Assembly: GCF_008520305.1 (NCBI RefSeq)
Contig: NZ_ML703285.1
Location: forward strand, 100,654 to 164,653
Length of the DNA stretch: 64,000 nucleotides
Reading direction: 5' to 3'
DNA from: Mesorhizobium sp. SARCC-RB16n
GTDB lineage: Bacteria; Pseudomonadota; Alphaproteobacteria; Rhizobiales; Rhizobiaceae
In this document: one piece after another, positions 21,813 through 36,948 of the stretch
Numbering within the stretch: the stretch's first letter is position 1
Layout: each line of letters starts with the position of its first letter
Program-made: the position numbers and the translations under genes
Notes under the pieces: generated by a model
Database searches by the model: none
What the model was told of the DNA's origin: nothing
Seen by the model: only the letters and a program-made list of their open reading frames with translations

Positions 21813-21858
21813 CCGCAAATGGTCTTGTTGTACGAACGTTCAACAAGACCATTTGCGG
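21813..21858. promoter_or_regulatory. 46-bp palindromic operator upstream of the CocE-type hydrolase (copy 1)
   Basis: A near-perfect palindrome with 23-base halves and 2 mismatching positions, centred between 21835 and 21836. Its inner 24 bases (21824-21847) are the half-sites CTTGTTGTACGA and ACGTTCAACAAG. The same core, with three base changes, lies at 36915-36938. The central TTG-N-ACG-N2-CGT-N-CAA form is like the operators I recall for BetI-type repressors, and a BetI-like TetR is encoded at 29314-29994. The right arm ends 9 bases before the TTG start at 21868. Confidence 0.75.
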
Positions 21859-21867
21859 GTACCTGCC

Positions 21868-23877
21868 TTGGTAAGAACCGAATTTCCCTTTGCCGTCGAA
21901 ACGGTCGATCCTCTTTGGATCGTGCTGGCCGACGGCACCCGCATCGCTGCCACTTTATGGCGCCCACGTAGTGAGGCCGCGGTACCTGTCGTCGTCGAAA
22001 TGGTTCCCTATCGCCGCCGCGACGGCACGGTGGCGCGCGACGTCGACATCCATCCCTGGCTCGCCGGCCACGGCATTGCCTGCGTCCGCATCGACATTCG
22101 CGGCTCCGGCGATTCCGACGGCGATCTGGCCGACGAATATCTGCCGCGCGAACAGGAGGATGCCTGCGAGATCATCGCCCATCTTGCAGCACTGACCTGG
22201 TGCAACGGCAAGGTCGGCATGACCGGCATTTCCTGGGGAGGCTTCAACGCGCTGCAGGTCGCGGCGCGTCGGCCGCCGGCCTTGAAGGCAATCATCGCCA
22301 ACTGCGCCACCGACGACCGTTATGCCGACGACATCCACTATATGGGCGGCGCGCTTTTGACCGAGCAGGAGATGTGGTCGAACTTCATGCTGGTGAAGAA
22401 GACGATGGCGCCCGACCCACAGATCGTCGGCGATGCTTGGCGCGCCATGTGGATGGGTCGGCTTGCGGCGACAACCTCGCTGTCGGAAATCTGGCTCGCG
22501 CATCAGCGCCGCGACGATTACTGGCGACAGGGCTCGGTCTGCGAAGACCACTCCGCCATCGAATGCGCGGTCATGGCCGTCTGCGGCTGGGAGGACAGCT
22601 ATTCGAATTTCGTGCCGCGCCTGCTTGAGCATCTGCCGGGACCGAAGCTTGGCATTGTCGGGCCGTGGTCGCATGCCTATCCCTGCCGCGGTGCGCCGGG
22701 ACCGCTGATCGGCTATCTGCAGGAGGCGCTGCGCTGGTGGCGCCATTGGCTCGCCGGCGAAGACACCGGCATCATGGACGAGCCACTCTACCGCGTCTGG
22801 GTAACGGGAGAGGAGCGGCCGCAACCTTTCTATCTGCCCGATCATGCGGGCAACTGGGCCGCGGAGGATGCGTGGCCATCGCCGCGCATCGAGCGCCGTG
22901 TGTTGCACCTGAATGCCGCCGGATTGCGCCGCGAATCCGCTCCGGGCGCTGTGCTTTCCGTCCGCTCGCCAGCCACCGCCGGGCGTGATTGCGGCCGCTG
23001 GGGCGGTTATGGCGGCTCCTGTCCGGACATGCCCATCGACCAGCGCCGCGAGGACGGCATGGCGCTTTGCTTCGATACGCAACCGCTCGACGATGACCTG
23101 ACCCTGCTTGGCGCGCCGGAACTCGATCTGCTCGTCACCGTCGACCAGCCGCATGTCAACCTCGCCGCACGGCTCTGCGATGTCTATCCCGATGGCACCT
23201 CGGCGCTGATGACCTATGGCGTGCTCAACCTCAGCCATCGCGACAGCCACGAGCATCCGACGCCCTGTCCAGTCGGAACGCCGTTCCGTGTGCGACTGAA
23301 GCTCAACGATTTCGCCCGCACCATTCCCAAGGGCCATCGCATCCGGCTGGCGCTGGCCAACCAGCACTGGCCCGTCCTGTGGCCACAACCGCACCTGTCG
23401 ACGCTGTCGGTCGCGACCGGCGACAGCACGGTCATGCTTCCGCTGCGCCCGCCGTCGTCGCGCGACCGCGATGTCCGCTTCGAGGCGGCCGAAACCGCGC
23501 CGCCGGTTCCGACCACGACGCTGGATGAAGGCTTCGACCGTCGCGTCGTCACCGACGATGTCGGCAGCGGCATTCAGACCATCGCGCTGACCTCGGACCA
23601 TGGACGCAGGCGCTATGACGATCGCGCCATCACCGTGTCCTCAGCCAACAGCGACACGATGAGCATTCGCGCCGATGATCCGCTGTCGGCGAAACTCGTC
23701 ACCGAATATCGCTGGGCGATCGCAAGCGCTGGAGCCGACACGGAAGCGACGGCATTGACCGAACTGACATCGGACGAAACCCATTTCAACCTGAGTTGGT
23801 GTGTCGAGGCGCGAGAACGGGGCAAGCTCGTCCACAGCGCCTCGGCGACGCGGCGCATCAGGCGCGATTTCGCCTGA
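21868..23877 (+). CDS. CocE/NonD-family (S15) alpha/beta hydrolase
   Basis: A 669-residue serine hydrolase of the X-Pro dipeptidyl-peptidase/cocaine-esterase/acylase group, expected to cleave an ester or amide. The N-terminal hydrolase domain has nucleophile S122 (TGISWGGF), probable acid D243 (CGWEDSYSN) and H269 (GPWSHAYP). The oxyanion region is near VPYRRRDG. A C-terminal jelly-roll domain follows (from about 390; RLALANQHWPVLWPQ). No signal peptide is present. No ATG fits; I use the TTG at 21868 (VRTEFPF), only 9 bases past the operator, so a normal ribosome site is absent. It is first in a seven-gene same-strand run with an ABC transporter. Confidence 0.85.
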   Translation: MVRTEFPFAVETVDPLWIVLADGTRIAATLWRPRSEAAVPVVVEMVPYRRRDGTVARDVDIHPWLAGHGIACVRIDIRGSGDSDGDLADEYLPREQEDACEIIAHLAALTWCNGKVGMTGISWGGFNALQVAARRPPALKAIIANCATDDRYADDIHYMGGALLTEQEMWSNFMLVKKTMAPDPQIVGDAWRAMWMGRLAATTSLSEIWLAHQRRDDYWRQGSVCEDHSAIECAVMAVCGWEDSYSNFVPRLLEHLPGPKLGIVGPWSHAYPCRGAPGPLIGYLQEALRWWRHWLAGEDTGIMDEPLYRVWVTGEERPQPFYLPDHAGNWAAEDAWPSPRIERRVLHLNAAGLRRESAPGAVLSVRSPATAGRDCGRWGGYGGSCPDMPIDQRREDGMALCFDTQPLDDDLTLLGAPELDLLVTVDQPHVNLAARLCDVYPDGTSALMTYGVLNLSHRDSHEHPTPCPVGTPFRVRLKLNDFARTIPKGHRIRLALANQHWPVLWPQPHLSTLSVATGDSTVMLPLRPPSSRDRDVRFEAAETAPPVPTTTLDEGFDRRVVTDDVGSGIQTIALTSDHGRRRYDDRAITVSSANSDTMSIRADDPLSAKLVTEYRWAIASAGADTEATALTELTSDETHFNLSWCVEARERGKLVHSASATRRIRRDFA

Positions 23878-23895
23878 GGCGAGGGGAGGAAGGCC

Positions 23896-24846
23896 ATGCT
23901 TGCGTATGCAGTGAAGCGCATCGGTCTCGGTATCCTGATCCTCGTCCTCGTCATGGTCGCGATGTACGCGGCCGTCTTCCTGGTTCCGGGCGATCCGGCA
24001 ACCGTCGCACTCGGTCCGCGCGCAACGCCGGAACTGAAGCGGCTGCTGATCGAGCGCATGGGCCTCGACCAGCCGGTCTGGTGGCAGATCGTCGAATTCT
24101 TCCGCAACGCGCTGACCGGCAATCTCGGTTACGACGTCTGGTCGAACCGGCCGGTTTCCACGCTGGTGCTGGAGGCACTGCCGAACACGCTGATCCTCAG
24201 CCTGACGGCACTTTCGGTCGCGCTCCTCCTCGGCGTGCCGCTCGGTTGCCTGTCGGTGATGCGGCGCGGGACGGCAGCCGATGCGGTCATCGGCGTGCTC
24301 TCCGTCGGCGTCATCGCCGTGCCGTCCTTTGTCGTCGCCATCTATTCGCTGCTCGTCTTTGCCGTCACGCTGCGCTGGCTGCCGGCCATCGGCGCGGGCG
24401 AGGCGGGTGACTTCATCAGCCAGGCCAAGGCGCTGGTCATGCCGGCCGCGGCGATCGCGCTGGGCTGGATCGGCTACATCGCCCGCATGGTGCGTGCCTC
24501 GATGATGGAGGTGATGGGGGAACCGCACATCCGCACCGCGCGCTCCTTCGGCCTGCCAGAGTGGAAGATCGTCTCCAAATACGCTCTGCGCATCGCCATC
24601 ATCCCGACCATCTCGCTGGTCGCGGTCGGCTTGGGCAGCATCCTCTCCAGTGCCGTTTTCGTCGAGGCGGTGTTTGCCCGGCCAGGCATCGGCAAGCTGA
24701 TCACCGACGCCGTCAACACCCGCAACTATCCGGTCGTCATGGGCACGGTGCTGATCATGACCGCCATCTACGTCTCCATCACCATTGCCGCCGATCTCTT
24801 GATTGCGCGGCTCGATCCGAGGGTGCGCGATGTCTTCCGTGGCTGA
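23896..24846 (+). CDS. ABC transporter permease, oligopeptide (DppB/OppB) type
   Basis: Inner-membrane subunit of 316 residues. The first helix is at the N terminus (GLGILILVLVMVAMYAAVFL), followed by the periplasmic loop PGDPATVALGP typical of DppB, then further helices. The EAA loop is HIRTARSFGLPEWKIVSKYALR. GGGGAGGAAGG lies upstream of the ATG. It overlaps the next permease by 17 bases. Peptide-type transporters of this family also carry opines, nickel complexes and small betaine-like compounds. Confidence 0.9.
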   Translation: MLAYAVKRIGLGILILVLVMVAMYAAVFLVPGDPATVALGPRATPELKRLLIERMGLDQPVWWQIVEFFRNALTGNLGYDVWSNRPVSTLVLEALPNTLILSLTALSVALLLGVPLGCLSVMRRGTAADAVIGVLSVGVIAVPSFVVAIYSLLVFAVTLRWLPAIGAGEAGDFISQAKALVMPAAAIALGWIGYIARMVRASMMEVMGEPHIRTARSFGLPEWKIVSKYALRIAIIPTISLVAVGLGSILSSAVFVEAVFARPGIGKLITDAVNTRNYPVVMGTVLIMTAIYVSITIAADLLIARLDPRVRDVFRG

Positions 24847-25713
24847 GGCCTCCCTGTCCACGCCCGATCGACAACGGTTCGCGCTGTTGCGTGCACTGCT
24901 TGCGGATCCGTTTACCGGCGTGGCGCTGATCCTGGTTACGGGCTTCCTCGTCACCGCGATCCTCGCGCCGTGGCTGGCGCCCTATTCCCCGGTCAAGATC
25001 GATGTGCTGCACAAGCTGCAGCCGCCATCGGCCGGACACTGGTTCGGCACTGATCATCTCGGCCGCGATCTCCTGTCGCGCGTCATCTACGGCGCGCGCA
25101 CGGCGCTGACGATCGCCATGATGTCGGTGGCCATCGCCGGCGCCATCGGCCTGCTGCTCGGCCTGATCGCCGGCTACGGCCCGCGCTGGCTGGATGCTAT
25201 CCTGGTGCTGAGCTTCGACAGCCTGAACTCGCTGCCGATGATCATGTTCGCGCTCGCCATCATCACCGTGCTCGGCGCCGGCGCCGGCACGCTGATCATC
25301 GTCATCGCGGCGACCTCATTCCCGAGCTATGCCAGGCTGATCCGGGCGCAAACGCTGGCGCTGAAGAACAGCGATTACATCCTTGCCGAACGCCTGATCG
25401 ATGCGAGTGCCGCGCGCATCATCTTTATCCATCTCCTGCCCAATGTCGTCGGCCCGCTGATCATCCTTTTGTCGATGGATATCCCGGTCGTCATCATGGT
25501 CGAGGCTGGTTTGAGCTTCCTCGGCCTGGGTGTCCGGCCGCCGACGCCGTCCTGGGGCTCGATCCTCTATGACGGCTACACCTCGATCCGCTCCGCGCCT
25601 TTCATGGTCATCTTCGGCGGGCTGCCGCTGGTGCTCGCCACGCTTGGCTTCACTTTCCTCGGCGAAGGCCTGCGTGACTATCTCGATCCGCGCCTGCAGT
25701 TGCGGAGGCCGGC

Positions 25714-25717
<4 letters not shown>
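24830..25717 (+). CDS. ABC transporter permease, oligopeptide (DppC/OppC) type
   Basis: Partner permease of 295 residues. It has an N-terminal OppC-like leader, a helix GVALILVTGFLVTAILAPWL and the family block GTDHLGRDLLSRVIYGAR. The EAA-like loop is DYILAERLIDASAARIIFIH, and the end reads GEGLRDYLDPRLQLRR. The ATG at 24830 sits inside the end of the preceding gene. An in-frame ATG at 24803 is less likely because it adds nine residues overlapping the upstream gene. The stop overlaps the next ATPase start (ATGA). Confidence 0.9.
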
Positions 25718-26675
<958 letters not shown>

Positions 26676-26679
<4 letters not shown>

Positions 26680-27710
26680 GCCCGCTGCTCGCCGTCGAAG
26701 AGCTCTCCGTAAGCTTCACCAGGGGCGGCTTGCTCAACCGGCTGATCAATCCGTTCCCGCTGCCAGCCTTCAACGTCATCGACGGCGTGACGCTGTCGCT
26801 GATCCCGGGCGAGACGCTCGGGCTGGTCGGCGAATCCGGCTCCGGCAAGACAACGCTCGCCCGCACCATCCTCGGTCTCGTGCGCGCGGCAGCGGGCCGT
26901 ATCGTCTTCGAGGGCAGGGATGTTGCGACGCCGGCCGATTTCCGTGCCATGCGCCGGCGCTCGGCGATGATGTTCCAGGACCCGGTCGCATCGCTCAGCC
27001 CGCGCCTGCGCATCGGTACGCTGCTCACCGAACCGCAGATCATCCAGGGGCTGCCGATGCCGGACCGCCGTGCGGCGGCGAAAGCGCTGCTGGCGTTGGT
27101 CGGCCTGCCGGCCTCGTTCGTCGACCGCTTTCCGCATGAACTGTCGGGCGGACAGGCGCGCCGGGTCGGCGTCGCGCGCGCCCTGGCGATGAAGCCGCAT
27201 CTGCTGCTCGCCGATGAGCCGACCGCCGGCCTCGATGTCTCGGTGCAGGGCGATGTGCTCAACCTGATCGGCGAGCTGAAGCGCGAGCTCGGTTTCGCCG
27301 CCATGGTCGTCACCCACAACCTGGCCATGATCCGTCACGTCAGCGACCGGCTCGCCATCATGTATCTCGGCCGGCTGGTCGAGACGGGGCCGACGCAAGA
27401 CGTGTTTTCCGCGCCGATGCATCCCTACACCGCGACGCTGATCCAGTCGGAGCCGATACCCGATCCGCGCCGGCGCAGCCAGAACCCTGCCGTCACCGGC
27501 GAGATCCCGAGCGTATTCCGGCGGCCTTCGGGCTGCGAATTCCACACACGCTGCCCGATCGCACGCGAGCGCTGCAGGACCGAGGCGCCGGTCTATCGGC
27601 CGATGGGCGCCGATCGCATGGTGCGCTGTCATTTCCCGCAGCAGACAGGCGGGCAAGAACGGGAAGCCCTTCTCACGCGCTTCCGCAAACCAAAGGGGAA
27701 ACTGACATGA
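26676..27710 (+). CDS. ABC transporter ATP-binding protein, oligopeptide (DppF) type
   Basis: Second ATPase of the transporter, 344 residues. Walker A is GESGSGKTT, the signature LSGGQARRVGVARA and Walker B LLLADEPTAGLDVS. The peptide-family C-terminal region ends PSGCEFHTRCPIARERC. Near the N terminus, between strand 1 and the usual first loop, there is a short insertion (GGLLNRLINPFPLPAFN). The signature LSGGQARR, in place of LSGGQRQR, is a minor variant. The ATG at 26676 overlaps the stop of the previous gene. Confidence 0.92.
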
Positions 27711-29269
27711 CGCAATGGACCATGGACAGACGTGCATTCCTGAAAGCGGCCGGCGTACTCGGCGCCGGCCTGGCGATGAAGCCGGATTTCGCCTGGTCGG
27801 CCGTCGGCGACACGCTGCGCATCCGCATGGAAGGTGACCTGCAGTGCCTCGATCCTGCCTTCATGAATGGCGGCATCGAGGATGTCATGATGCGCGGCAT
27901 CTATGTCTCGCTGAACCATTTCGGCGACATTCGGAAAGGCTCGCCCTGGTCGCTGTGGGGCGCCGAAAAGCTCGAACAGAAAGACCCGAAAACCATCGCC
28001 TTCACCTTGATCGACGGGCTGAAATGGTCTGGTGGATTCGGCGCGGTCACTGCCGACGACGTGAAATTCTCGTTTGAGCGCATAGCCGACAAGGCCCTGT
28101 CGTCGCCCTGGGCCTATCAGTTCGAAAAACTCGACCGCGTCGAGGTCGTCGATGCCCGCAACGGCATCATCCATTTGAAAGAGCCATACCAGCCGATCTT
28201 CGTCACCAGCCTGCCCTACTACGGCGGCCACATCATCAGCCGCGCCGGCACGGAGAAGGCTGGCGGCAAATTCACCACCCAGCCGCCGGCGACCTGCGGT
28301 CCTTATCTCTTCTCGGATTGGCAGCAGAAGCAGAAGGTGACGCTATCAGCCAATCCGGACTGGCCGGGACCGAAGCCGGATTTCGGCAAGGTAGAGATCT
28401 ATGTCGTGTCAGACGATCAGGCAGCCCAACTCGCCTACGAGGCCGACGCGTTCGACTACACCAAGATCGCCATTTCGGCGACCAAGGCCGTCAAGGCGAA
28501 GCCGCTCGCGGACACGAACCTGATCGAGGCCCAGTCGACCCGTTATGTCTGGCTGACCATCAACATGCTGAGTCCGCGCCTCAAGGACCTGAAAGTCCGC
28601 CAGGCCGTGCAGTATGGCGTCGATGTCGGCCAGATCCTGACCGGCGTCTATGACGACCTGACGAAGCGCTCGACCGGTGTCGTCCAGCCCGGTACCAAAT
28701 TCGCGCGCGCTAGCAATTTGATCGCCGCGCCAGACTATGCGAAGTCGGCGGCGCTTTTGGCGGAAGCCGGCGTCAGCGACCGGTCGCTGACGCTGACCGT
28801 GATGAATGATTCCATCCGCACCGCGACTGCCCAGATCATCCAAGCCAGTCTGGAACAGGCCGGCATAAAGGTCGAGATCCAGCCCTATGACGAAGCCGCC
28901 TTCTGGGGTGTCGGCGACAAGACGCAGGGCGATGGCTACAAGAACATCGACCTGGCACTGATGGACTTCGCCGGCGGCATCGATCCTTCCGAAAATCTGG
29001 TCTGGTTCCGCCCCGACCAGATCGGCGCTTACAATTGGTCCGGCTTCGACAGCCCCGAGTTCGAGACAAGCTACCAGCAACTGGTGGCGGAAAGCGACGA
29101 TGCCAAGCGGGTTGCCCTGTCCAACCGAATGGAGGACCTGATGGAGCAGTCCGGCGGCTTCTTGTTCATCTGCCATCAGCCGCTGGTCGCCATCCACAAG
29201 ACCGCATTCGATCCGGTCATCTATCCCGACGGTCACCCCAATCCGGTGCTGTTCAAGAAGAAGGCCTGA
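27707..29269 (+). CDS. ABC transporter substrate-binding protein, SBP_bac_5 type, Tat-exported
   Basis: Periplasmic receptor of 520 residues. The signal peptide has a twin-arginine motif (MDRRAFLKAAGVLGAGLA, residues 6-23), so it is probably exported folded by Tat. The family core follows: LDPAFMNGGIEDVMMRGIY, FSFERIADKALSSP and the hinge segment SNLIAAPDYAKSAALLAEAG. The family binds peptides, nickel-chelates or small cationic compounds. The gene is last in the transporter order and overlaps dppF by 4 bases. Its ligand is inferred only from context (quaternary amine or conjugate). Confidence 0.9.
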   Translation: MTQWTMDRRAFLKAAGVLGAGLAMKPDFAWSAVGDTLRIRMEGDLQCLDPAFMNGGIEDVMMRGIYVSLNHFGDIRKGSPWSLWGAEKLEQKDPKTIAFTLIDGLKWSGGFGAVTADDVKFSFERIADKALSSPWAYQFEKLDRVEVVDARNGIIHLKEPYQPIFVTSLPYYGGHIISRAGTEKAGGKFTTQPPATCGPYLFSDWQQKQKVTLSANPDWPGPKPDFGKVEIYVVSDDQAAQLAYEADAFDYTKIAISATKAVKAKPLADTNLIEAQSTRYVWLTINMLSPRLKDLKVRQAVQYGVDVGQILTGVYDDLTKRSTGVVQPGTKFARASNLIAAPDYAKSAALLAEAGVSDRSLTLTVMNDSIRTATAQIIQASLEQAGIKVEIQPYDEAAFWGVGDKTQGDGYKNIDLALMDFAGGIDPSENLVWFRPDQIGAYNWSGFDSPEFETSYQQLVAESDDAKRVALSNRMEDLMEQSGGFLFICHQPLVAIHKTAFDPVIYPDGHPNPVLFKKKA

Positions 29270-29313
29270 ATGCTTTCATGGACACGAAGGACGCAATCGA
29301 TTAGCTGGGGTCC

Positions 29314-29994
29314 ATGACCGAAGCGGGATCAGCCCCTGAAAAACGCAAGCGCGGCGCCAAGAAATCGCCGCCGCGCTTCAGCCGCGAACAGGCGGATGTG
29401 CGCCGCTCCATGCTGATTGAAGCGGCGACGCGCTGCCTGTCCGTCGGCGGCATAGGCGCCTTCACCATCGATCGCATCTGCAGGGAGGCGGGCGTCTCGC
29501 GCGGCCTCATCAACCATCACTTCGAAAGCCTCGACGGGTTGCTGGTCGAGGTCTACAAATCCTCGCTCTACGCCAGCGTCAACAACCAGATCGCCGAGGC
29601 CAAGCGCCGCCGCGCCGAAGCGTCGGACTGGCCCCCGGAGGCTTCGCTCGCCGCCTTGGTGCGCTCCAACTTCTCGCCGGATTACTTCAGCCGCGAGAAC
29701 CTGCTGATCTGGCTGTCGCTGTGGGGCGAGATCGCCGTCAATCCGCGTCTTCAGGCAGCGCATCGCGAGCTTTACGACGCCTACCGGGCGGAGTTGGCGG
29801 AGGATATCGCGGCTGTTGCCATACCGCGACTCAGGCAAGTCGATGCTCCCTCGCTGGCGCGCAATTTCATCGCCTTGGTCGACGGGCTGTGGCTGGAATG
29901 GTGCCTCGATGAGAGCGTGGTGACGCCACAGGCCGCGGAGGCGGCAGGGTTTGAGATGCTCGAGGCGCAAGTGGGGCCGCTTCGCGACGGCTGA
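29314..29994 (+). CDS. TetR-family regulator, BetI-like
   Basis: A 226-residue repressor with a basic N-terminal tail. The helix-turn-helix reads FTIDRICREAGVSRGLINHH, followed by FESLDGLLVEVY, a pattern I associate with BetI, the choline/betaine-responsive repressor. It has BetI-like length plus a C-terminal ligand-binding helix bundle. It is 44 bases downstream of the receptor gene. The two palindromes at 21813-21858 and 36905-36948 have the TTG-N-ACG-N2-CGT-N-CAA centre expected for such a protein, so it is the best candidate to control both units. Confidence 0.82.
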   Translation: MTEAGSAPEKRKRGAKKSPPRFSREQADVRRSMLIEAATRCLSVGGIGAFTIDRICREAGVSRGLINHHFESLDGLLVEVYKSSLYASVNNQIAEAKRRRAEASDWPPEASLAALVRSNFSPDYFSRENLLIWLSLWGEIAVNPRLQAAHRELYDAYRAELAEDIAAVAIPRLRQVDAPSLARNFIALVDGLWLEWCLDESVVTPQAAEAAGFEMLEAQVGPLRDG

Positions 29995-30020
29995 ATGGGA
30001 GGGCAGCGCTTCTTCGCACC

Positions 30021-30043
30021 TTGCCGGGCCAAGCCGGCAGTTT
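30021..30043. terminator. Weak hairpin between convergent tetR and lysR genes
   Basis: TGCCGG (30022-30027), a 6-base loop and CCGGCA (30034-30039), then GTTT on the plus strand. The stem is short, but it lies in the only gap where both convergent transcripts could end. Confidence 0.35.
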
Positions 30044-30077
30044 CCGCCTCACGTCCCTCTTGCTTCTTGCACAGCGG

Positions 30078-30932
30078 CTATGCGGTCATCTGCCTGAGCG
30101 CCTTGAGCAGGCGAATATGGGTGTGGGAATGATGGTGCCTGACATGAACGGCCGAATAGATGGGATGTGAAATCTTTGGCGCATCGACGACGAACTCCGC
30201 CACGCCCTCCTGCCGCAACCTGGTCGCCACCGTCTCGGTAACGAAAGCGGTGCCGCCCCGGCTTCGCAAGAGATAGGCGACAGCGCCGCCATTTCCGGTC
30301 GAGACCGGGGTGCTTTCAAGCTCCGGCAGCATCTGCTTGTGGGCGCGGTTGAAGAAAGCCGAATAGTTAGCCCGGATATAGTCGGCCGGCGTGACCGCAC
30401 CGAAGGCAAGGCCACGCGTCGAGACCATGACGAAATTCTCCTCGGCGATCTGCTCGTAATGCATGTCCGGCAGGTGCTGCGGCGAATAGAGCACCGCCAG
30501 ATCGAGGCTGCCGGTGGTGAGGTCGAGGATCATCTGGTTGGAGTAGTCGATCTCGACGTAGATCGCCAGTTTGGGCATCGTCGCCCGCACCCATTCCAGC
30601 CATCCTTCCAGCACGCGCTCGTAAAGCTCGAACTGGATGCCGATGCGGATCAGCCGGTCGAACTTGCCGACCGCCTGGATTTCGTGACGGGCGTCGAGCC
30701 AGCGCAACCTGACCGCGCGCGCATGCTCCTCGAACCTCAGCCCGGCGACGGTCGGTTCCGTGCCGCTCTTGCCGCGGATGAAGAGCTGCTTGTCCAGCAA
30801 TGCCTCGAGCGCGCGGATGCGGCTTGAAACGGTCGACTGGGTGATGCCCAGCCGCTCCGCCGTCCTGTTGAAGTTGCGGGTTTCGATCAGGTCCAGGAAC
30901 GTGTCCAAGAGTTCGATCTGCATCTCGGCCAT
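30078..30932 (-). CDS. LysR-family transcriptional regulator
   Basis: A 284-residue LysR protein. The N-terminal winged helix-turn-helix reads NFNRTAERLGITQSTVSSRI (residues 20-39), followed by the usual linker and periplasmic-binding-like effector domain. It is divergent from the amidohydrolase/Rieske/HD operon. The gap contains an ATC-N9-GAT element at 30991-31005, the classical LysR target form, so it most likely activates that operon in response to a pathway compound. M4 (start 30923) is an alternative start. Confidence 0.88.
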   Translation of the reverse strand: MAEMQIELLDTFLDLIETRNFNRTAERLGITQSTVSSRIRALEALLDKQLFIRGKSGTEPTVAGLRFEEHARAVRLRWLDARHEIQAVGKFDRLIRIGIQFELYERVLEGWLEWVRATMPKLAIYVEIDYSNQMILDLTTGSLDLAVLYSPQHLPDMHYEQIAEENFVMVSTRGLAFGAVTPADYIRANYSAFFNRAHKQMLPELESTPVSTGNGGAVAYLLRSRGGTAFVTETVATRLRQEGVAEFVVDAPKISHPIYSAVHVRHHHSHTHIRLLKALRQMTA

Positions 30933-30988
30933 CCAGCGCCAGGAATTCCTCCAATGGCTAACGCTTTTCGGGCCGGTCCGACAACGGG

Positions 30989-31007
30989 TAATCGGATTCT
31001 TCGATTA
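30989..31007. promoter_or_regulatory. LysR-type binding site (ATC-N9-GAT)
   Basis: TAATCG-N7-CGATTA is a perfect 6-base inverted repeat with 7-base spacer, containing the LysR-family T-N11-A/ATC-N9-GAT form. It sits between lysR (start 30932) and the divergent amidohydrolase gene (start 31074), about where an activator would contact RNA polymerase. Confidence 0.65.
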
Positions 31008-31073
31008 ACATCTCGCCGCTGGCTGCGTTGCCGGTCCTGCCTTGGAAGCGCACGGTTGACGCAATTCCCACCC

Positions 31074-32177
31074 ATGGCAGGCAAGACACCCATGTTCATC
31101 GTCGACACCGACGTCCACAATTACTGGTCCAGCGCCGAGGTTCTGCTTCCCTATCTCGAGCCCTACTGGCGCGATTTCCTGGTGCGCGGCGAAAAGCCCG
31201 GGCCTAGGGGAAGCTTTCCGCACGGCCACCGTCCGTGGCTGCATCCCGAGGGGTTCTCTCGTAACGACATCAAGCCGCAGACCGAGGAAGACAATTATCT
31301 GATCATGAAGGAGAAGCACCTCGATCTCTATGACATCGATGTGGCGATCCTCACCGCCGACGAGCCGCTGGAAGCCTCGACGCTGGCTAACTACCACTAT
31401 GCCAACGCGCTGGTGAGGGCCTATAACGACTACATGATCGACTGGTGGCTGCCAAAGGACAGCCGCTTCAAGGGATCAATCATCATTTCGCCGACCGACC
31501 CGCACGGTGCCGCAGCCGAGATCCGGCGCCTCGGCGGCCACAAGGACATTGTGCAGGTTCTGGCCAGCCACGGCGCGCAGCGCCCTTACGGCGATCCCTT
31601 CTATCATCCGATCTACGAGGCCTGCGCCGAGGTCGGGTTGCCCTTCGCCATCCATTTCGGCGGCCAGGGCGGCGTCAACCACAATGCGGTCGCCAGCGGT
31701 CCGACTGCCTACTACTGGGAAACGCACGCCTTGCTCAGCCAGCCGGCGATGACCCATGTGGTCAGCATGATCTCCAACGGCGTGTTCGAGAAATATCCCG
31801 ACCTCTATTTCGTGGTCATCGAATGCGGCGTGTCCTGGGTGCCGTCGCTGATGTGGCGGCTCGACGCCAACTTCAAGGCACTGCGCAAGGAGACGCCGTG
31901 GCTGAAGATGCTGCCGTCGGAATATTGCCGCCGCAACATCCGCTTCAGCACCCAGCCGCTGGAGCAACCGCAGAACGTGAAACATCTGTGGGAGACGTTG
32001 GAGCACATGGACGGCCAGAACACATTGCTCTTCGCGTCCGACTATCCGCACTGGGATTTTGACGCGCCGACCAACCTGCATATTCCACCGGCCTGGCGCG
32101 ACAAGGTGATGGGACTGAATGCGCTGGAGGTCTACAAGCGTATCGAGGTTCCGGCCGTCACTGCGAGGGTCGCCTGA
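31074..32177 (+). CDS. Amidohydrolase_2-family metal-dependent hydrolase (ACMSD-like TIM barrel)
   Basis: A 367-residue TIM-barrel protein of the group that includes ACMS decarboxylase and related hydrolases/decarboxylases. Visible metal-site elements are FIVDTDVHNYW at the N terminus, FAIHFGGQGG in the middle, the strand YFVVIECGVSW and the closing FASDYPHWDFD. The first motif is D-V-H rather than H-x-H, as in many members of this subgroup. The ATG at 31092, preceded by AGGCAAG, is a plausible alternative start. The stop overlaps the next gene (TGATG). Its substrate is unknown; the partners point to an amine-derived intermediate. Confidence 0.8.
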   Translation: MAGKTPMFIVDTDVHNYWSSAEVLLPYLEPYWRDFLVRGEKPGPRGSFPHGHRPWLHPEGFSRNDIKPQTEEDNYLIMKEKHLDLYDIDVAILTADEPLEASTLANYHYANALVRAYNDYMIDWWLPKDSRFKGSIIISPTDPHGAAAEIRRLGGHKDIVQVLASHGAQRPYGDPFYHPIYEACAEVGLPFAIHFGGQGGVNHNAVASGPTAYYWETHALLSQPAMTHVVSMISNGVFEKYPDLYFVVIECGVSWVPSLMWRLDANFKALRKETPWLKMLPSEYCRRNIRFSTQPLEQPQNVKHLWETLEHMDGQNTLLFASDYPHWDFDAPTNLHIPPAWRDKVMGLNALEVYKRIEVPAVTARVA

Positions 32178-32554
32178 TGAGCGCCGCTGCAACCGCTCCG
32201 GCGCTGACCTTTGCCTGCAAGGCCGCCGAGGTCGCTGTCGGCAAGCCCAGGATCGTCACCATCGGCCGCATCCGCGTCGGCATCTTCCAGCTCGCGGATG
32301 GCTATGCTGCCCTGCTCAACATCTGCCCGCATCGGGCAGGCCAGCTTTGCGAGGGGCCGATCTCTGGCACCACCAGGCAAACGGACAACACGGAGTTCGT
32401 CTACGAGCGCGCCGGCGAGCTCATTCGTTGCGCCTGGCATGGATGGGAGTTCGACATCCGGTCCGGCAAATGCCTCGTCGACGAGAAGCTCAGGGCGCGC
32501 ACCTTTCCCATTCATGTCGACGGCGACGACATCTATCTCGAAATGCGCCGCTGA
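32177..32554 (+). CDS. Rieske [2Fe-2S] ferredoxin
   Basis: A 125-residue single-domain Rieske protein. The cluster ligands are C50 and H52 (ICPHRAGQL) and C85 and H88 (RCAWHGWEFD), forming the CxH...CxxH pattern. There is no catalytic mononuclear-iron domain and no membrane anchor, so it should be a soluble electron carrier or a small accessory subunit. The stretch between the ligand pairs is long, with an inserted GTTRQTDNTEFVYERAG loop. It is translationally coupled to the amidohydrolase (TGATG) and lies 33 bases before the HD gene, so one of these two enzymes probably receives its electrons. Confidence 0.88.
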   Translation: MSAAATAPALTFACKAAEVAVGKPRIVTIGRIRVGIFQLADGYAALLNICPHRAGQLCEGPISGTTRQTDNTEFVYERAGELIRCAWHGWEFDIRSGKCLVDEKLRARTFPIHVDGDDIYLEMRR

Positions 32555-32587
32555 CGGCCACGTGCCGCAAATCTTGGAGTTTCGACA

Positions 32588-33217
32588 ATGGAAACCGTGA
32601 AGTTCACCCAGATGAAGGATGGCGACGGCGAGGACTATGCCTTCCTGACCGAACACGAAACCGAATATGCCGCCGGCACGGCCGACCGGCTGCTGGCGGC
32701 CATGGTCGAACTCGACAAATCGCTGTCAGGCTACAAGGTGACGCGGCTCGGCCATTCGCTGCAGGCCGCCACGCGCGCCTGGAATGCCGGCGCCGATATC
32801 GACTGGGTGGTGTCGGCGCTGCTGCATGACATCGGCGACGTCTACGCTCCCTACAATCACGACGAATACGCGGCCGCCATCCTGCGTCCCTTCGTGCGCG
32901 AGCAATGCGCCTGGGTAGTGGAAAAGCATGGCGATTTCCAGCTGATCTACTTTGGCGAGCATGTCGGTGCGAACCCACACAAGCGGGACGCGTTCAGGGA
33001 CAACGCCTATTTCGACGACTGCGCCGAGTTCTGCGAGAAATGGGACCAGTCGAGCTTCGATCCGGACTATCCGACACGGCCGCTGAACTTCTTCGCGTCG
33101 TTGGTGCGGGAAGTGTTCGCCCGCAAGAGCCACGATCCCGCCGTCGTCAGGCCCGGAATGCGCATTGCGATGTCGGATGACGCGACCGCCGCCGAGCGGT
33201 CGGGCAGTAGCGCTTGA
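32588..33217 (+). CDS. HD-domain protein, candidate mixed-valent diiron oxygenase
   Basis: A 209-residue HD-domain protein. Potential metal ligands are H56 (RLGHSLQAA), H80-D81 (LLHDIGD), H91 (YNHDEY), H114 (VEKHGDF) and an aspartate near 153-160. This H...HD...H...H...D set can hold two irons. The 24-residue spacing H56-H80 equals that of H34-H58 in the oxygenase PhnZ, and a Tyr (Y49) precedes the first histidine as in that group. HD proteins of this kind are either phosphohydrolases or oxygenases (PhnZ, TmpB, myo-inositol oxygenase). Pairing with a Rieske protein in a non-phosphate operon favours the oxygenase reading, but this is inference. It is the last gene of the operon. Confidence 0.72.
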   Translation: METVKFTQMKDGDGEDYAFLTEHETEYAAGTADRLLAAMVELDKSLSGYKVTRLGHSLQAATRAWNAGADIDWVVSALLHDIGDVYAPYNHDEYAAAILRPFVREQCAWVVEKHGDFQLIYFGEHVGANPHKRDAFRDNAYFDDCAEFCEKWDQSSFDPDYPTRPLNFFASLVREVFARKSHDPAVVRPGMRIAMSDDATAAERSGSSA

Positions 33218-33292
33218 CGAGGCTGAGATATTTTTCCAGGGCCTGAACCCCCCGCTTTGTCCTGCCCGATTTCTCCCTAGAAGGGTGCCCCT

Positions 33293-34831
33293 TCAATTCA
33301 GTGGCGAGCCACCTTCGCGCTTACGGCGCTCCATATAGTCGCGCAGCGCTTCGTCGATGCCGGGATCGATCGGCGGCTGCTCGTATTCGGCGACCATGCG
33401 CTTCCAGACGACATTGGCGCGCTCGCGCGCGGTCACCTGGCCGCGCTCAATCCAGGTGTCGTAATTGTCCCAGTTGGATACCAATGGCGAATAGAAGGCG
33501 CGCTCGTAGCGCTGCATGGTGTGGGCGGCGCCAAAGAAATGCCCGGCCGGGCCGACCTCGCGCACGGCCTCCAGCGCCAGCGTGTCGATGTCAACGACCG
33601 GCGGATCGAAATAGGCCGACATCATCTGCAGCATCTCGGCATCGATAACCAGTTTCTCGAACGATGCCGTCAGGCCACCGCCGAGCCAGCCGGCGGCGTG
33701 CATCACCAGATGGGCGCCGCCCATCAGGCAGCCCCACAGCGACATGGCGCTCTCATAGGCCGCCTGTGCATCGACCGAATTGGCGGCGGTGACGTTGCTG
33801 GACCGGAACGGCACGCCGATCAGGCGGCTGAGCTGGCCGGTGATCTGTGCCGCCTGGGTGTATTCGGGCGTGCCGAAGGCCGGGGCGCCGGTCTTCATGT
33901 CGACATTGGAGGTGAAGCCGCCATACATCACCGGCACGCCGGGTTGCACGATTTGGGTCAGCGCGATGCCGGCCAGCGCCTCGGCATGCTGCTGCGACAG
34001 AGCGCCGGCCAGCGTCACCGGGCTCATCGCACCAGCCAGCGTGAACGGCGTGATGACATTGACCTGTCCGTGTTCAGCCAGCGCAATCAGCCCCTCGGCC
34101 ATCGGCTCATCGAGCTGCAGCGGCGAATTGGTGTTGATGATGCCGGTGAACGAAGGCATCTCCCGGACGAGGTCCTCGCGCGTGGTGCCGAGCGAAATCG
34201 CCACCATCTCCAGCGCGTCGATGGTGCGTCCACGCCCGAGCGCCTGCGGCTGCCAGTTCTTGTCGAGAAGCGTGATCTCGGCATAGTAGAGGTCGAGGTG
34301 ACGGGTGTTCTGGTGCAGGTCGAGCGGCTCGAACGGCCCGCCGCCTTCCTGATGCAGCACGTTGAACGATTGGATCAGCTTGAGGTAGTCGCACATCTCC
34401 GCATAGGTTCCGGGCCGGCGACCGCGATCATTGTCCATGACATAGGCCGGTCCGCCCACCGACGACAGGATGCAATGCCGTCCGCCGACCTTGACGTTCT
34501 TCTCAGGGTTGCGGGCGCGCAGTTCAAACGACGACGGCACCGTGGCTATGCGCTCCATGATCATGGCGCGGTCGAAACGCACGCGCATCTCGCCTTCGTC
34601 GACATCACAGCCCGCCGCGCGATAGAGCTGTCGTGCCCGCGGCTGCAGCACCCGCATGCCGATCTCTTCCAGGATGGTGAGACCCGTCTCGTGGATCGAC
34701 CGCACCTGGTCGGCCGACAGGATCTCGATCGGCGCGTACGGCCGTGTCAGCTGCTTCCAGGGGCGCTGAGCGATGCCGCCGATTTCGCGCTGCGGGCGGC
34801 CGGGTCTGCGACGGGCTGTACTGCGTTCCAT
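33293..34831 (-). CDS. Trimethylamine methyltransferase (MttB/MtgB) family protein, non-pyrrolysine
   Basis: A 512-residue member of the MttB superfamily, whose characterised non-pyrrolysine members (such as MtgB for glycine betaine) move a methyl group from a quaternary amine to a corrinoid protein. The family core is seen in ILSSVGGPAYVMDNDRGRR, EGGGPFEPLDLHQNTRHLDL, the PVMYGGFTSNVDMKTGAPAF stretch and MGGAHLVMHAAGWLGGGLT. There is no in-frame amber codon. Its first 85 bases overlap the end of the upstream flavoprotein gene, which implies tight coupling. No corrinoid protein gene is in the window. Confidence 0.85.
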   Translation of the reverse strand: MERSTARRRPGRPQREIGGIAQRPWKQLTRPYAPIEILSADQVRSIHETGLTILEEIGMRVLQPRARQLYRAAGCDVDEGEMRVRFDRAMIMERIATVPSSFELRARNPEKNVKVGGRHCILSSVGGPAYVMDNDRGRRPGTYAEMCDYLKLIQSFNVLHQEGGGPFEPLDLHQNTRHLDLYYAEITLLDKNWQPQALGRGRTIDALEMVAISLGTTREDLVREMPSFTGIINTNSPLQLDEPMAEGLIALAEHGQVNVITPFTLAGAMSPVTLAGALSQQHAEALAGIALTQIVQPGVPVMYGGFTSNVDMKTGAPAFGTPEYTQAAQITGQLSRLIGVPFRSSNVTAANSVDAQAAYESAMSLWGCLMGGAHLVMHAAGWLGGGLTASFEKLVIDAEMLQMMSAYFDPPVVDIDTLALEAVREVGPAGHFFGAAHTMQRYERAFYSPLVSNWDNYDTWIERGQVTARERANVVWKRMVAEYEQPPIDPGIDEALRDYMERRKREGGSPLN

Positions 34832-36897
34832 GGCTTGGTCCCTGTGGGAAAAACTGGTCGCTCGCGCAGCGGTATTGCTGCCCCTGCCGGCAGGTCGATA
34901 TGGCGGGCGTACTTGTGGCCGGAATGCACCGCGTCGGCGATCGAGGACGGTGCCAGGCAGTCGCCGATCCGCGTGATTGACGGGTTGTTCTCGCGCTTGC
35001 GCGCACTTGCCGCGGAAAGCGCGTCGAACAGCGCCTGTTCGGCGATGCGTCCCGTCACCAGCACCAGCGTGCCGAAGTCGCGGCGCGTGACCCGGCCGGT
35101 GTAGGTGCAGGCGAATTCGGCAACGCCGTTCGCTGCCGACATCAGGCTTTGCGACAAGAGCAGGCCGATGCCGCTTTCCATCAACCGCTTCTGGACGAAG
35201 AACTGCTCGTCGGTCATCTGCGTCCAGCTCGACACCACTGGCAGCGGCGTGGCGATGGTCACCGCGTGGCCGGCAACGCGCAGTTTCTCCGCCAGCGCAC
35301 CGCCCATGAAATAATGCTCGTCGTCATAGACCAGCACCGGACCCGTTACCGGGACTCCGGCGAAGATGTCGTCCGGCGTCAGGATCGACGGCGACGCCTT
35401 GATCCCGACCGGCATCTCGACGCTGGCGCCGACACCGTCGCGCCGCCAGAAGCTGCCGGTCGCCAGCACGACATGGTGGACGCCGAGCGACAGCACGTCC
35501 TCGGCGTCGAGCCGGCTCCCGGGATAGATCTCGACCGATGGCTGCTTGCCGAGCATGTGCAGGCGGTGGTCGCGTACCCGCGCCCATGACGCCAGCCCGG
35601 GCAATGTCGCCTCCCGCGAGACGCGGCCGCCGAGCGCGTTGCCGGCTTCGGCCAGCATCACGCCATAGCCGCGCCGGCCAAGCGTCAGTGCGCATTCGAG
35701 CCCTGCGGGGCCGCCGCCTACCACCAGCACGCGCGCTTCCGAACCCTTGTTGTCGACCTGTTCGGGATGCCAGCCGCGTCGCCATTCCTCGCCGATCGTC
35801 GGGTTCTGGGTACAGCGCAGCGGCACGCTTTCATTGTTGGCCGAGCGGCAGATATTGCAGCCGATGCATTCGCGGATATCGTCCTCGCGTCCCTCGAAGA
35901 TCTTCTTCGGAAGGAACGGGTCGGCGATCGACGGGCGCGCCGCGCCGATGAAATCCTGGATGCCACGCCGGATCTGGCCGACCATGGTGTCCGGCGAGGT
36001 GAAGCGCCCGACGCTGACCACCGGTTTTGTCGTCAGCCCTTTGACGAAGCCGACATACTTTTCCTGAAAACCTTCCGCGCTGAAGCGTGACGATTTGGAA
36101 TCGTTGCCGAGCGAACCGGCAACATTGATGTCCCAGAGATCCGGCAGCTCGGCCAGCATCTCGATGATCTCGCGCCCTTCGCCTTCCGAGGTGATGCCGT
36201 GCGGGCCGTGCAGTTCATCGACCGCCAGCCGCACCGCCACCGCGCATGTCTCGCCCACCGCCTCTTTCGTTTCTTCGATCATTTCGCGCAGCAGCCGCAC
36301 GCGGTTCTGCAAGGCGCCGCCATACTCGTCGGTGCGGCGGTTGGTGCGGCGCGACAGGAACTGGAACGGCAGGTAGTCGTGCCCGGCATAACAGTAGACG
36401 ATGTCGAACCCCGCCCGCCGCGCGCGGATCGCGGCTTCGCGCTGCCAGCGACGGAAATCGCTGATGTCCTGCCGGTCCATGGCGCGCGCGCCGCCGGGCT
36501 GGACGAATTTCGCCGGCTGCGCCGAGGGCGCCAGCAGTGGTTCGCGCGTCAGCCGGTTGTTGGTGTGGGCGCCGCCATGCCACAGCTCGACCGCTGCCAG
36601 GCTGCCATGCGCGTGGATGGCGTCGGCGGTGCGTGCCAGGTCGCGGACATCGTCCTCATCCCACAGCGACAGGAAGCCAAACGGCGAGTCGTCGGAACTT
36701 GGATGGATCGAGCAATATTCCGTCGAGACCACGCCCCAGCCGCCTTCGGCCTTGATGCCGCGCAAGGCCGCGCCACTCTGGGGCTTCTGGTGGCCCATGC
36801 CGGTCGCATGCGGGGTCTGGTAGAAGCGGTTCGGCGCGGTGACGGGCCCGATGCGAACCGGTTCGAACAGGATTTCGTAGCGGGGATTGCAATGCAT
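34747..36897 (-). CDS. TMADH-like Fe-S flavoprotein (N-methylproline/dimethylglycine demethylase type)
   Basis: A 716-residue protein of the trimethylamine dehydrogenase/2,4-dienoyl-CoA reductase family, as in StcD and DgcA, which oxidatively demethylate betaine-derived amines. The N-terminal old-yellow-enzyme barrel binds FMN (residues 1-335). A 4Fe-4S site has C344, C347, C350 and C362 (CIGCNIC...RC). Then comes an FAD/NAD Rossmann part with GGGPAG (394-399) and a second nucleotide-binding domain. The ATG at 36897 is 7 bases from the palindromic operator and lacks an evident ribosome site. It is the first gene of the unit with the MttB-family gene. Confidence 0.85.
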   Translation of the reverse strand: MHCNPRYEILFEPVRIGPVTAPNRFYQTPHATGMGHQKPQSGAALRGIKAEGGWGVVSTEYCSIHPSSDDSPFGFLSLWDEDDVRDLARTADAIHAHGSLAAVELWHGGAHTNNRLTREPLLAPSAQPAKFVQPGGARAMDRQDISDFRRWQREAAIRARRAGFDIVYCYAGHDYLPFQFLSRRTNRRTDEYGGALQNRVRLLREMIEETKEAVGETCAVAVRLAVDELHGPHGITSEGEGREIIEMLAELPDLWDINVAGSLGNDSKSSRFSAEGFQEKYVGFVKGLTTKPVVSVGRFTSPDTMVGQIRRGIQDFIGAARPSIADPFLPKKIFEGREDDIRECIGCNICRSANNESVPLRCTQNPTIGEEWRRGWHPEQVDNKGSEARVLVVGGGPAGLECALTLGRRGYGVMLAEAGNALGGRVSREATLPGLASWARVRDHRLHMLGKQPSVEIYPGSRLDAEDVLSLGVHHVVLATGSFWRRDGVGASVEMPVGIKASPSILTPDDIFAGVPVTGPVLVYDDEHYFMGGALAEKLRVAGHAVTIATPLPVVSSWTQMTDEQFFVQKRLMESGIGLLLSQSLMSAANGVAEFACTYTGRVTRRDFGTLVLVTGRIAEQALFDALSAASARKRENNPSITRIGDCLAPSSIADAVHSGHKYARHIDLPAGAAIPLRERPVFPTGTKPWNAVQPVADPAARSAKSAASLSAPGSS

Positions 36898-36904
36898 TGG
36901 ATCT

Positions 36905-36948
36905 GGTGAATATGCTTGTTGAACGATCGTACAACAAGCATATTCGCC
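36905..36948. promoter_or_regulatory. 44-bp palindromic operator upstream of the demethylase gene (copy 2)
   Basis: Palindrome with 22-base halves and 2 mismatching positions, centred between 36926 and 36927. The inner 24 bases (36915-36938) are CTTGTTGAACGA and TCGTACAACAAG, differing from copy 1 at 21824-21847 in three positions only. The outer arms differ from copy 1 but are again self-complementary. It ends 7 bases before the ATG of the minus-strand demethylase gene. It is the probable target of the BetI-like TetR at 29314-29994. Confidence 0.75.

What the first reader, a model, noticed from the sequence alone, without database searches (positions are those of the whole stretch)
21813..36948. 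Two nearly identical palindromic operators bracket a 15 kb catabolic block
Sequence shows: 46-bp (21813-21858) and 44-bp (36905-36948) palindromes share a 24-bp core with half-sites CTTGTTGnACGA and nCGTnCAACAAG, with only three base differences between the copies. One precedes the CocE-type hydrolase/ABC transporter/TetR run on the plus strand; the other precedes the demethylase/MttB genes on the minus strand. Family knowledge: TTG-N-ACG-N2-CGT-N-CAA is like BetI-type operators as I recall them, and the TetR between the two copies is BetI-like. Inference: a local regulon with one repressor, not just adjacent genes.
Basis: partly seen in the sequence, partly recalled or inferred. Interest (0 to 1): 0.88.

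Follow-up and report, generated by a model that had tools for sequence, protein, structure and literature searches.

The report
Two-site TetR regulon with palindromic operators
Two matching DNA switches face each other across a 12-17 kb nutrient-use gene block in Mesorhizobium and are probably controlled by the repressor gene between them; the extra-long mirror-image arms around each switch look as if one arm was sometimes copied onto the other during DNA replication.

Summary
Observation confirmed: the palindromes are the window's two strongest inverted repeats; their 24-bp cores differ at 3 positions. Comparison supports the regulon. A close relative of the TetR at 29314-29994 occurs in 40 of 146 genomes of the genus; all 40 have the core at <=2 mismatches, 39 at <=1. 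Of 106 genomes without it, none has the core at <=1 mismatch, two at 2. In 35 of the 40, one site precedes the CocE-ABC-TetR operon and one the amine dehydrogenase/MttB operon. Distant TetRs lie within 200 bp of the same core in 20 of 23 sphingomonad loci. The TetR is BetI-like but misses both NCBIfam BetI cut-offs. The less ordinary part lies outside the core: the outer arms differ between sites and species yet mostly stay reverse complements. At site A the two main palindromic forms are opposite one-arm corrections of one mismatched ancestor; at site B the core centre is flipped in three genomes. I infer template switching at an operator. Site B gives weaker support, and a selected hairpin or wider protein contact is not excluded. 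Binding is untested.

The parts
21824..21847 (.). site A operator core CTTGTTGTACGAACGTTCAACAAG
   Evidence: found before cocE in 36 A loci (window included); 22-bp core exact in 33, one mismatch in 3
21813..21823 (.). site A left outer arm (upstream side); sequence not conserved, complementary to right arm
21848..21858 (.). site A right outer arm (gene side)
36915..36938 (.). site B operator core (palindromic; before the minus-strand operon)
   Evidence: found before dmd in 38 B loci (window included); 22-bp core exact in 29, one mismatch in 8, two in 1
36905..36914 (.). site B outer arm, gene side (minus-strand gene)
36939..36948 (.). site B outer arm, upstream side; contains part of a possible -10 (TATGCT, by eye only)
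   Evidence: the promoter scan found no promoter at its threshold
21868..23877 (+). CocE/NonD-type hydrolase
   Evidence: TIGR00976, 210.9 bits, above its cut-off of 66.3
23896..24846 (+). ABC permease (dipeptide/opine type)
24830..25717 (+). ABC permease (start uncertain)
25714..26679 (+). ABC ATPase
26565..27710 (+). ABC ATPase (start uncertain)
27707..29269 (+). family-5 solute-binding protein
29314..29994 (+). TetR-family repressor with BetI-type C-terminal domain and a conserved basic N-terminal stretch; predicted binder of both sites
30078..33217 (.). optional cassette (LysR, amidohydrolase, two further genes), between the TetR and mttB genes in 6 loci, window included
   Evidence: three of its genes lie outside the block in L142
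33293..34831 (-). MttB-superfamily methyltransferase (no in-frame stop, so not a pyrrolysine form; below the TIGR02369 cut-off)
34747..36897 (-). dmd (name given here): trimethylamine/histamine-dehydrogenase-like flavoenzyme

Best explanation
The two sites are operators of one local repressor, the BetI-like TetR encoded between them as the last gene of the cocE operon. Without inducer (probably a methylated amine, betaine or ester taken up by the ABC system) a TetR dimer sits on the 22-bp core TTGTTGnACGnnCGTnCAACAA just upstream of each start codon and blocks two convergent operons: import, hydrolysis and TetR itself from site A; dehydrogenation and methyl transfer from site B. The long outer arms are not part of the conserved operator. 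They most likely arose because the core is an imperfect inverted repeat on which replication now and then switches template, copying one arm as the reverse complement of the other and sometimes flipping the centre. Shown by comparison: the sites, their context, TetR co-occurrence, core conservation, and arm complementarity despite sequence turnover. Inferred: binding, inducer, repression, and the template-switch origin of the arms.
For: Regulon: no further copies up to 2 mismatches in three whole genomes; TetR in 40 of 146 genomes, core at <=2 mismatches in all 40 (39 at <=1) and in 2 of the other 106 (0 at <=1); fixed architecture; recognition-helix stretch GVSRGLINHHF identical in the 36 relatives' TetRs printed; a related TetR within 200 bp of the core in 20 of 23 sphingomonad loci. 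Arms: complementarity over 11 pairs is 0.778 (A, 36 sites) and 0.761 (B, 38), against shuffled means of 0.577 and 0.642, 0 of 2000 shuffles reaching either. Two opposite one-arm corrections at A: at pairs 2-4 the commonest unpaired forms are T.G, C.C and G.A; 16 sites keep the left bases and 10 the right. At A, three branches gain >=3 pairs in the left arm (null mean 0.008) and three in the right (0.032), 0 of 1000 each. Core centre reversed (T7/T16 to A7/A16) in 3 of 38 B sites, one being L129, whose sister L143 is not reversed.
Against: No binding, expression or transcript data. Even at A, reconstructed pair-making arm changes (34) are slightly fewer than pair-breaking ones (40), and 4 branches lose >=3 pairs against 3 that gain >=3. 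At B, arm changes are not clustered on branches (9 observed, null mean 8.4, 948 of 2000 reach it), pair-breaking changes (65) far outnumber pair-making ones (10), and the arms change more slowly than the flanks (3.5 and 5.6 against 7.5 per column), so there the palindrome looks ancestral and decaying; the one B branch with a gain of >=3 leads to the L126 group. Sphingomonad sites have the same core but little arm complementarity, although the same process should act there. Of 16 other non-Mesorhizobium loci, 9 show no TetR relative in the fetched stretch. Right-arm indels in several A sites inflate apparent multi-base changes. L-type arms may reflect one event plus recombination. Columns were reconstructed independently.
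Confidence: 0.7

Rival explanations
1. The outer arms are kept by selection for a hairpin: a 5' leader RNA stem next to the start codon, or a DNA cruciform, as a second layer of control. Covariation then comes from ordinary compensatory mutations.
For: Strong covariation; a sharp end of pairing after pair 12 at site A (24 of 36 at pair 12, 1 of 36 at pair 13); >=7 of 11 pairs in 27 of 36 A and 31 of 38 B sites; at B the arms change more slowly than the flanks.
Against: Nine of 36 A and 7 of 38 B sites have <=6 of 11 pairs although the adjacent gene is present. At A the arms change about as fast as the flanks (L 4.1, R 4.6, flanks 4.6 and 5.1 changes per column; core 0.18). The commonest unpaired states at pairs 3 and 4 (C.C, G.A) are not wobble steps. 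Rfam has no match in 18000-40000. If TATGCT at site B is the -10 (by eye; not called by the scan), the left arm is not transcribed.
Confidence: 0.25
2. The protein reads more than the core: the basic N-terminal stretch (KRKRGAKK in the window) reaches A/T-rich minor grooves in both arms, or further dimers bind there, which selects for symmetric arms.
For: At site A, positions 5-8 outside the core are A/T in 75-97% (left) and 86-100% (right) of 36 sites; a block at positions 3-7 in B is 87-100% (left) and 68-100% (right) A/T; sphingomonad sites are A/T-rich at positions 5-6 (0.85, 0.76, both sides pooled). The basic stretch is largely conserved. Minor-groove binding by such an extension in another TetR (SimR) is recalled, not looked up.
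Against: It explains A/T content but not the covariation of G/C-containing pairs at 2-4 and 9-10. The same TetR would have to read different arm sequences at A and B in one cell.
Confidence: 0.3
3. A dispersed mobile palindrome (MITE or REP type), or chance.
For: Long palindromes with divergent arms are typical of such elements (general knowledge).
Against: Three whole genomes have two copies and no others up to 2 mismatches; no genome of the 146 has more than two at <=2 mismatches; the same two contexts recur; 0 in shuffles of the window.
Confidence: 0.01
4. Another regulator, such as the LysR at 30078-30932, uses the sites.
For: A LysR gene lies inside the block in the window.
Against: The LysR gene is inside the block in 6 loci (window included) of those compared, while the sites are present without it in the others; the TetR is present in all 39 genomes of the genus with a site at <=1 mismatch; 25 more distant loci with the core carry a related TetR.
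Confidence: 0.03

Closest known systems
BetI regulons of Proteobacteria, e.g. the two BetIs of Ruegeria pomeroyi DSS-3 (PMC12442346; search listing and passages seen)
   Same: TetR with BetI-type C-terminal domain, a palindrome with TTG...ACG/CGT...CAA half-sites, control of quaternary-amine-type catabolism, short local regulon.
   Different: The published box is ATTGACG*CGTCAAT; here one more base lies within each half-site, two bases lie at the centre and TTG is doubled. Both NCBIfam BetI cut-offs are missed. In the block itself there are no betA/betB-type genes; instead CocE, a dipeptide-type ABC system, MttB and a TMADH-like enzyme.
Quasipalindrome correction / template switching between inverted-repeat arms (yeast genes: PMC8604942, abstract, one results section and passages seen; RNA genes: PMC8794818, outline with abstract and opening text; E. 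coli: PMC7202029, search listing only)
   Same: Arm homogenisation, multi-base jumps to perfect pairing, parallel events, and inversion of the spacer between perfect arms.
   Different: Here it is proposed for a bacterial transcription-factor operator, with the core held by selection and only the arms free to be copied.

Membership tests
TetR family, BetI-type C-terminal group | TetR_N and TetR_C_6 Pfam domains above gathering score | tested here: met
   45.4 against 24 bits; 77.5 against 27 bits
BetI (equivalog) | NCBIfam TIGR03384 / NF001978 score cut-off | tested here: not met
   94.7 against 201.3 and 94.9 against 118 bits
BetI (equivalog) | betI box ATTGACG*CGTCAAT | tested here: not met
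   core TTGTTGnACGnnCGTnCAACAA differs in half-site and centre spacing from the box quoted in PMC12442346
BetI (equivalog) | adjacent choline-oxidation genes | tested here: not met
   families found for the genes of the block; genes further away in the genome were not searched
Local TetR regulon | sites limited to operons linked to the repressor gene | tested here: met
   exceptions at the 2-mismatch level: G064, G071 and one extra hit in G136
Local TetR regulon | repressor binds both sites and is released by inducer | not testable with these tools
   needs EMSA/footprint and a deletion strain
Template-switch-corrected inverted repeat | one arm becomes the reverse complement of the other in multi-base jumps | tested here: inconclusive
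   site A: jumps above null, but pair loss as frequent as gain; site B: no clustering and mostly pair loss
Template-switch-corrected inverted repeat | spacer inversion between arms | tested here: met
   3 of 38 B sites and 0 of 36 A sites; sister comparison L129/L143; pattern as described in PMC8604942. Two separate point mutations are not excluded

The most novel reading that the evidence does not exclude
A repressor's palindromic operator acts as a seed for its own growth: selection holds the 22-bp core while template switching repeatedly copies one flank onto the other, so operators become 44-46 bp palindromes whose arms evolve in concert without being needed. Arm covariation, usually read as proof of a functional hairpin, would then be a mutational by-product at transcription-factor sites.
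Probability: 0.45. Interest if true: 0.6.

Novelty: new member of a known kind. Interest (0 to 1): 0.42.

Why it matters
It gives an uncharacterised BetI-like repressor a precise 22-bp candidate operator, two target operons and a clear test, and links it to sphingomonad repressors that sit beside the same core. If the arm-copying reading holds, it is a natural series showing that long perfect palindromes and compensatory changes at operators can arise by mutation alone, a caution for predicting hairpins and footprint lengths from covariation.

Tried and rejected
Rejected: dispersed or mobile repeat; a regulator other than the TetR; BetI proper; a known RNA element (0 Rfam matches at gathering score in 18000-40000). 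The first pattern typed had one N too many and found nothing; it was corrected. The consensus promoter scan found no promoter at either site, so the -10 mentioned here is by eye only. IQ-TREE ancestral reconstruction failed and was replaced by my own joint reconstruction. In the genus search at <=2 mismatches the backwards-read control pattern also hit once each in 10 of 146 genomes, so single 2-mismatch hits such as those of G064 and G071 are at chance level. Paper searches for template switching at operators: 0 papers; 2 each, listings only and only loosely related. MttB with Mesorhizobium gave 2 papers (listing only). One loosely related paper came from the first BetI search. One of the 10 paper searches was not used.

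Rows left out: L151 and L152 (2-mismatch sites without the TetR) were not used in arm analyses. G138, G139 and G075 carry sites, but their loci were not fetched, so their arms were not compared. L140 lacks mttB and is absent from the B tree. Rows L143 and L145 are partial in the A tree. Counts at A include right arms with indels. Arm sites were assigned to cocE or dmd by lying within 200 bp of the gene start.

Full report
Observation. The 24-bp core occurs at 21824-21847 and 36915-36938 only, with three differences between copies and none found in 100 shuffles. Outside the core the two sites share little: site A has arms CCGCAAATGGT/ACCATTTGCGG and site B GGTGAATATG/CATATTCGCC, each nearly self-complementary.

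What lies between. Plus strand: a CocE/NonD hydrolase, a dipeptide/opine-type ABC system with a family-5 binding protein, and a TetR with BetI-type C-terminal domain. Minus strand: an MttB-superfamily methyltransferase (best solved matches 4yyc, a putative trimethylamine methyltransferase, and 9yce, glycine betaine methyltransferase) and a flavoenzyme closest to histamine and trimethylamine dehydrogenases. In the window's enzyme the residue aligned to the cysteine of wild-type TMADH 'PHC' is alanine; that this cysteine carries the covalent FMN is recalled. The block fits uptake and dismantling of an N-methylated compound, perhaps an ester; the substrate is not known.

Regulon test. A scan of genome contigs gave 81 stretches with the exact core, 80 of them listed: 42 from Mesorhizobium, 23 from sphingomonads and 16 others. 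Three Mesorhizobium whole genomes have exactly two sites at <=2 mismatches. In 146 genomes of the genus of G002 (reached through L008, a Mesorhizobium loti record), 42 have a site at <=2 mismatches; the backwards-read control hits in 10. A close relative of the window's TetR (E <= 1e-30) is in 40 of 146, and all 40 are among the 42; the other two (G064, G071) have one 2-mismatch hit each. At <=1 mismatch the split is 39 of 40 against 0 of 106. In 34 relatives both sites lie in one locus; with the window the spacings run from 10.6 to 16.9 kb. G029 has the sites on two contigs. Wherever a locus was read, site A precedes cocE and site B the dehydrogenase gene. G019, G136, G138 and G139 have one site at <=1 mismatch; in G019 and G136 it is site B, and G136 has a further 2-mismatch hit elsewhere; the gene context in G138 and G139 was not read. 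G075 has two 2-mismatch sites.

Outside the genus. A TetR of about 31-36% identity lies within 200 bp of the core in 20 of 23 sphingomonad loci; in the other three the site is within 200 bp of the end of the fetched stretch. Of the 16 other loci, 7 have a TetR relative in the stretch (3 within 200 bp) and 9 have none. Among the 25 loci with a more distant TetR, the mechanically chosen TetR start is 5-17 nt from the core in 11; in most of the rest the mechanical start ran through the site, and in L009, L025 and L040 the TetR is about 2.8 kb away. This is good comparative evidence that this TetR group reads this core. It is not a binding experiment.

Is it BetI? Not by the tested criteria: both NCBIfam BetI models score under their cut-offs, and the box reported for an alphaproteobacterium, ATTGACG*CGTCAAT (PMC12442346, passages), differs in spacing. 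It works like BetI in outline.

The arms. Oriented by gene, 36 A and 38 B sites (window included) were compared. At A, core columns average 0.18 changes on the tree, against 4.1 and 4.6 for left and right arms and 4.6 and 5.1 for flanks; at B the figures are 0.59, 3.5, 5.6, 7.5 and 7.5. So at A the arms show no sequence conservation of the core's kind; at B they are somewhat slower than the flanks. Yet complementarity over 11 pairs is 0.778 (A) and 0.761 (B), against 0.577 and 0.642 on re-dealing partners, 0 of 2000 each, and it falls to 0.18-0.36 when slid by one or two positions. At A, pairing stops abruptly after pair 12 (24 of 36, then 1 of 36).

Direction. A sites fall into 16 with a right arm beginning GAG, 10 with a left arm ending GCC or ACC, the window's own form, and 9 with <=6 pairs. 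Among these 9 the commonest states at pairs 2, 3 and 4 are T.G (6), C.C (7) and G.A (4). The first palindromic type keeps the left base and has a matching right base; the second keeps the right base and has a matching left base. They look like the two opposite corrections of one mismatched ancestor. Both types and an unpaired form lie in one ten-row clade of the cocE-permease tree (L130 unpaired, L129/L143 of the first type, seven of the second; some forks there are weak). Against a null of independent change along the same tree, site A shows three branches gaining >=3 pairs in the left arm (null mean 0.008) and three in the right (0.032), 0 of 1000 each (gains are counted against the child's other arm). 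One-arm clusters of >=3 changes at A: 17 against a null mean of 8.0 (maximum 15 in 2000). Against this, pair-breaking changes at A (40) are as common as pair-making ones (34): the arms are lost as well as made.

Site B is weaker. Its left arm ends GAATATGC in 31 of 38. Reconstruction makes the palindrome ancestral, with 65 pair-breaking and 10 pair-making changes and no clustering (9 against 8.4, 948 of 2000). One branch, to the L126 group, gains >=3 pairs in both arms (reached by 4 and 7 of 1000 simulations). The close pair L113/L116 differs at five places in 140 bp, three of them in the right arm, and all three alter pairing, but the direction is unclear. A separate sign is the centre of the B core: position 7/16 is T/T in 30, A/T in 5 and A/A in 3 (L114, L129, L140); at A it is T/T in 36 of 36. 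A/A is what an inversion of the centre gives. L129's sister L143 is T/T; L114 and L140 are sisters on the cocE-permease tree, so two events are likely. Arm homogenisation and spacer inversion together are the marks described for template switching between inverted-repeat arms in yeast (PMC8604942, one section read), and template switching has been reported to create and mend RNA stems (PMC8794818, abstract and opening text).

Alternatives for the arms. A selected hairpin or a wider protein contact remain possible. A/T-rich blocks at positions 5-8 (A) and 3-7 (B) on both sides are conserved, sphingomonad sites are A/T-rich at positions 5-6, and the TetR has a largely conserved basic N-terminal stretch, so some arm contact is plausible. 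It would not by itself explain the covariation of G/C-containing pairs. The low arm complementarity in sphingomonads counts against a purely general mutational account, unless promoter elements there forbid arm copying, which is a guess.

Verdict. An ordinary kind of regulon, newly delimited and well supported by comparison, with an unusual and testable evolutionary feature in its operator arms.

Noticed in passing
window:34747-36897 (-): The dehydrogenase behind operator B exists in two forms: 88-95% identical to the window's in L133, L136, L147 and only 49-54% in 34 other loci, all behind the same operator, which suggests enzyme replacement under a kept switch.
   Followed up: partly
window:30078-33217: A LysR/amidohydrolase/HD-domain cassette sits between the TetR and mttB genes in 6 loci, window included; three of its genes lie outside the block in L142, so it looks like a movable accessory module.
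   Followed up: partly
window:34747-36897 (-): The residue aligned to the TMADH cysteine of the 'PHC' motif is alanine here (as in 6l6j), so the covalent flavin link of TMADH may be missing.
   Followed up: no
L011:5316, L042:6708, L023:6162 and other sphingomonad loci: The same 22-bp core lies beside a 31-36% identical TetR gene in sphingomonads, an apparently autoregulated relative with unknown targets.
   Followed up: partly
window:36943-36959 (-): A short terminator-like match lies just upstream of site B on the same strand, overlapping its upstream arm (0.2 expected in shuffles).
   Followed up: no
window:42020-44100: Arginase-family and ornithine cyclodeaminase genes lie together on the plus strand.
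   Followed up: no
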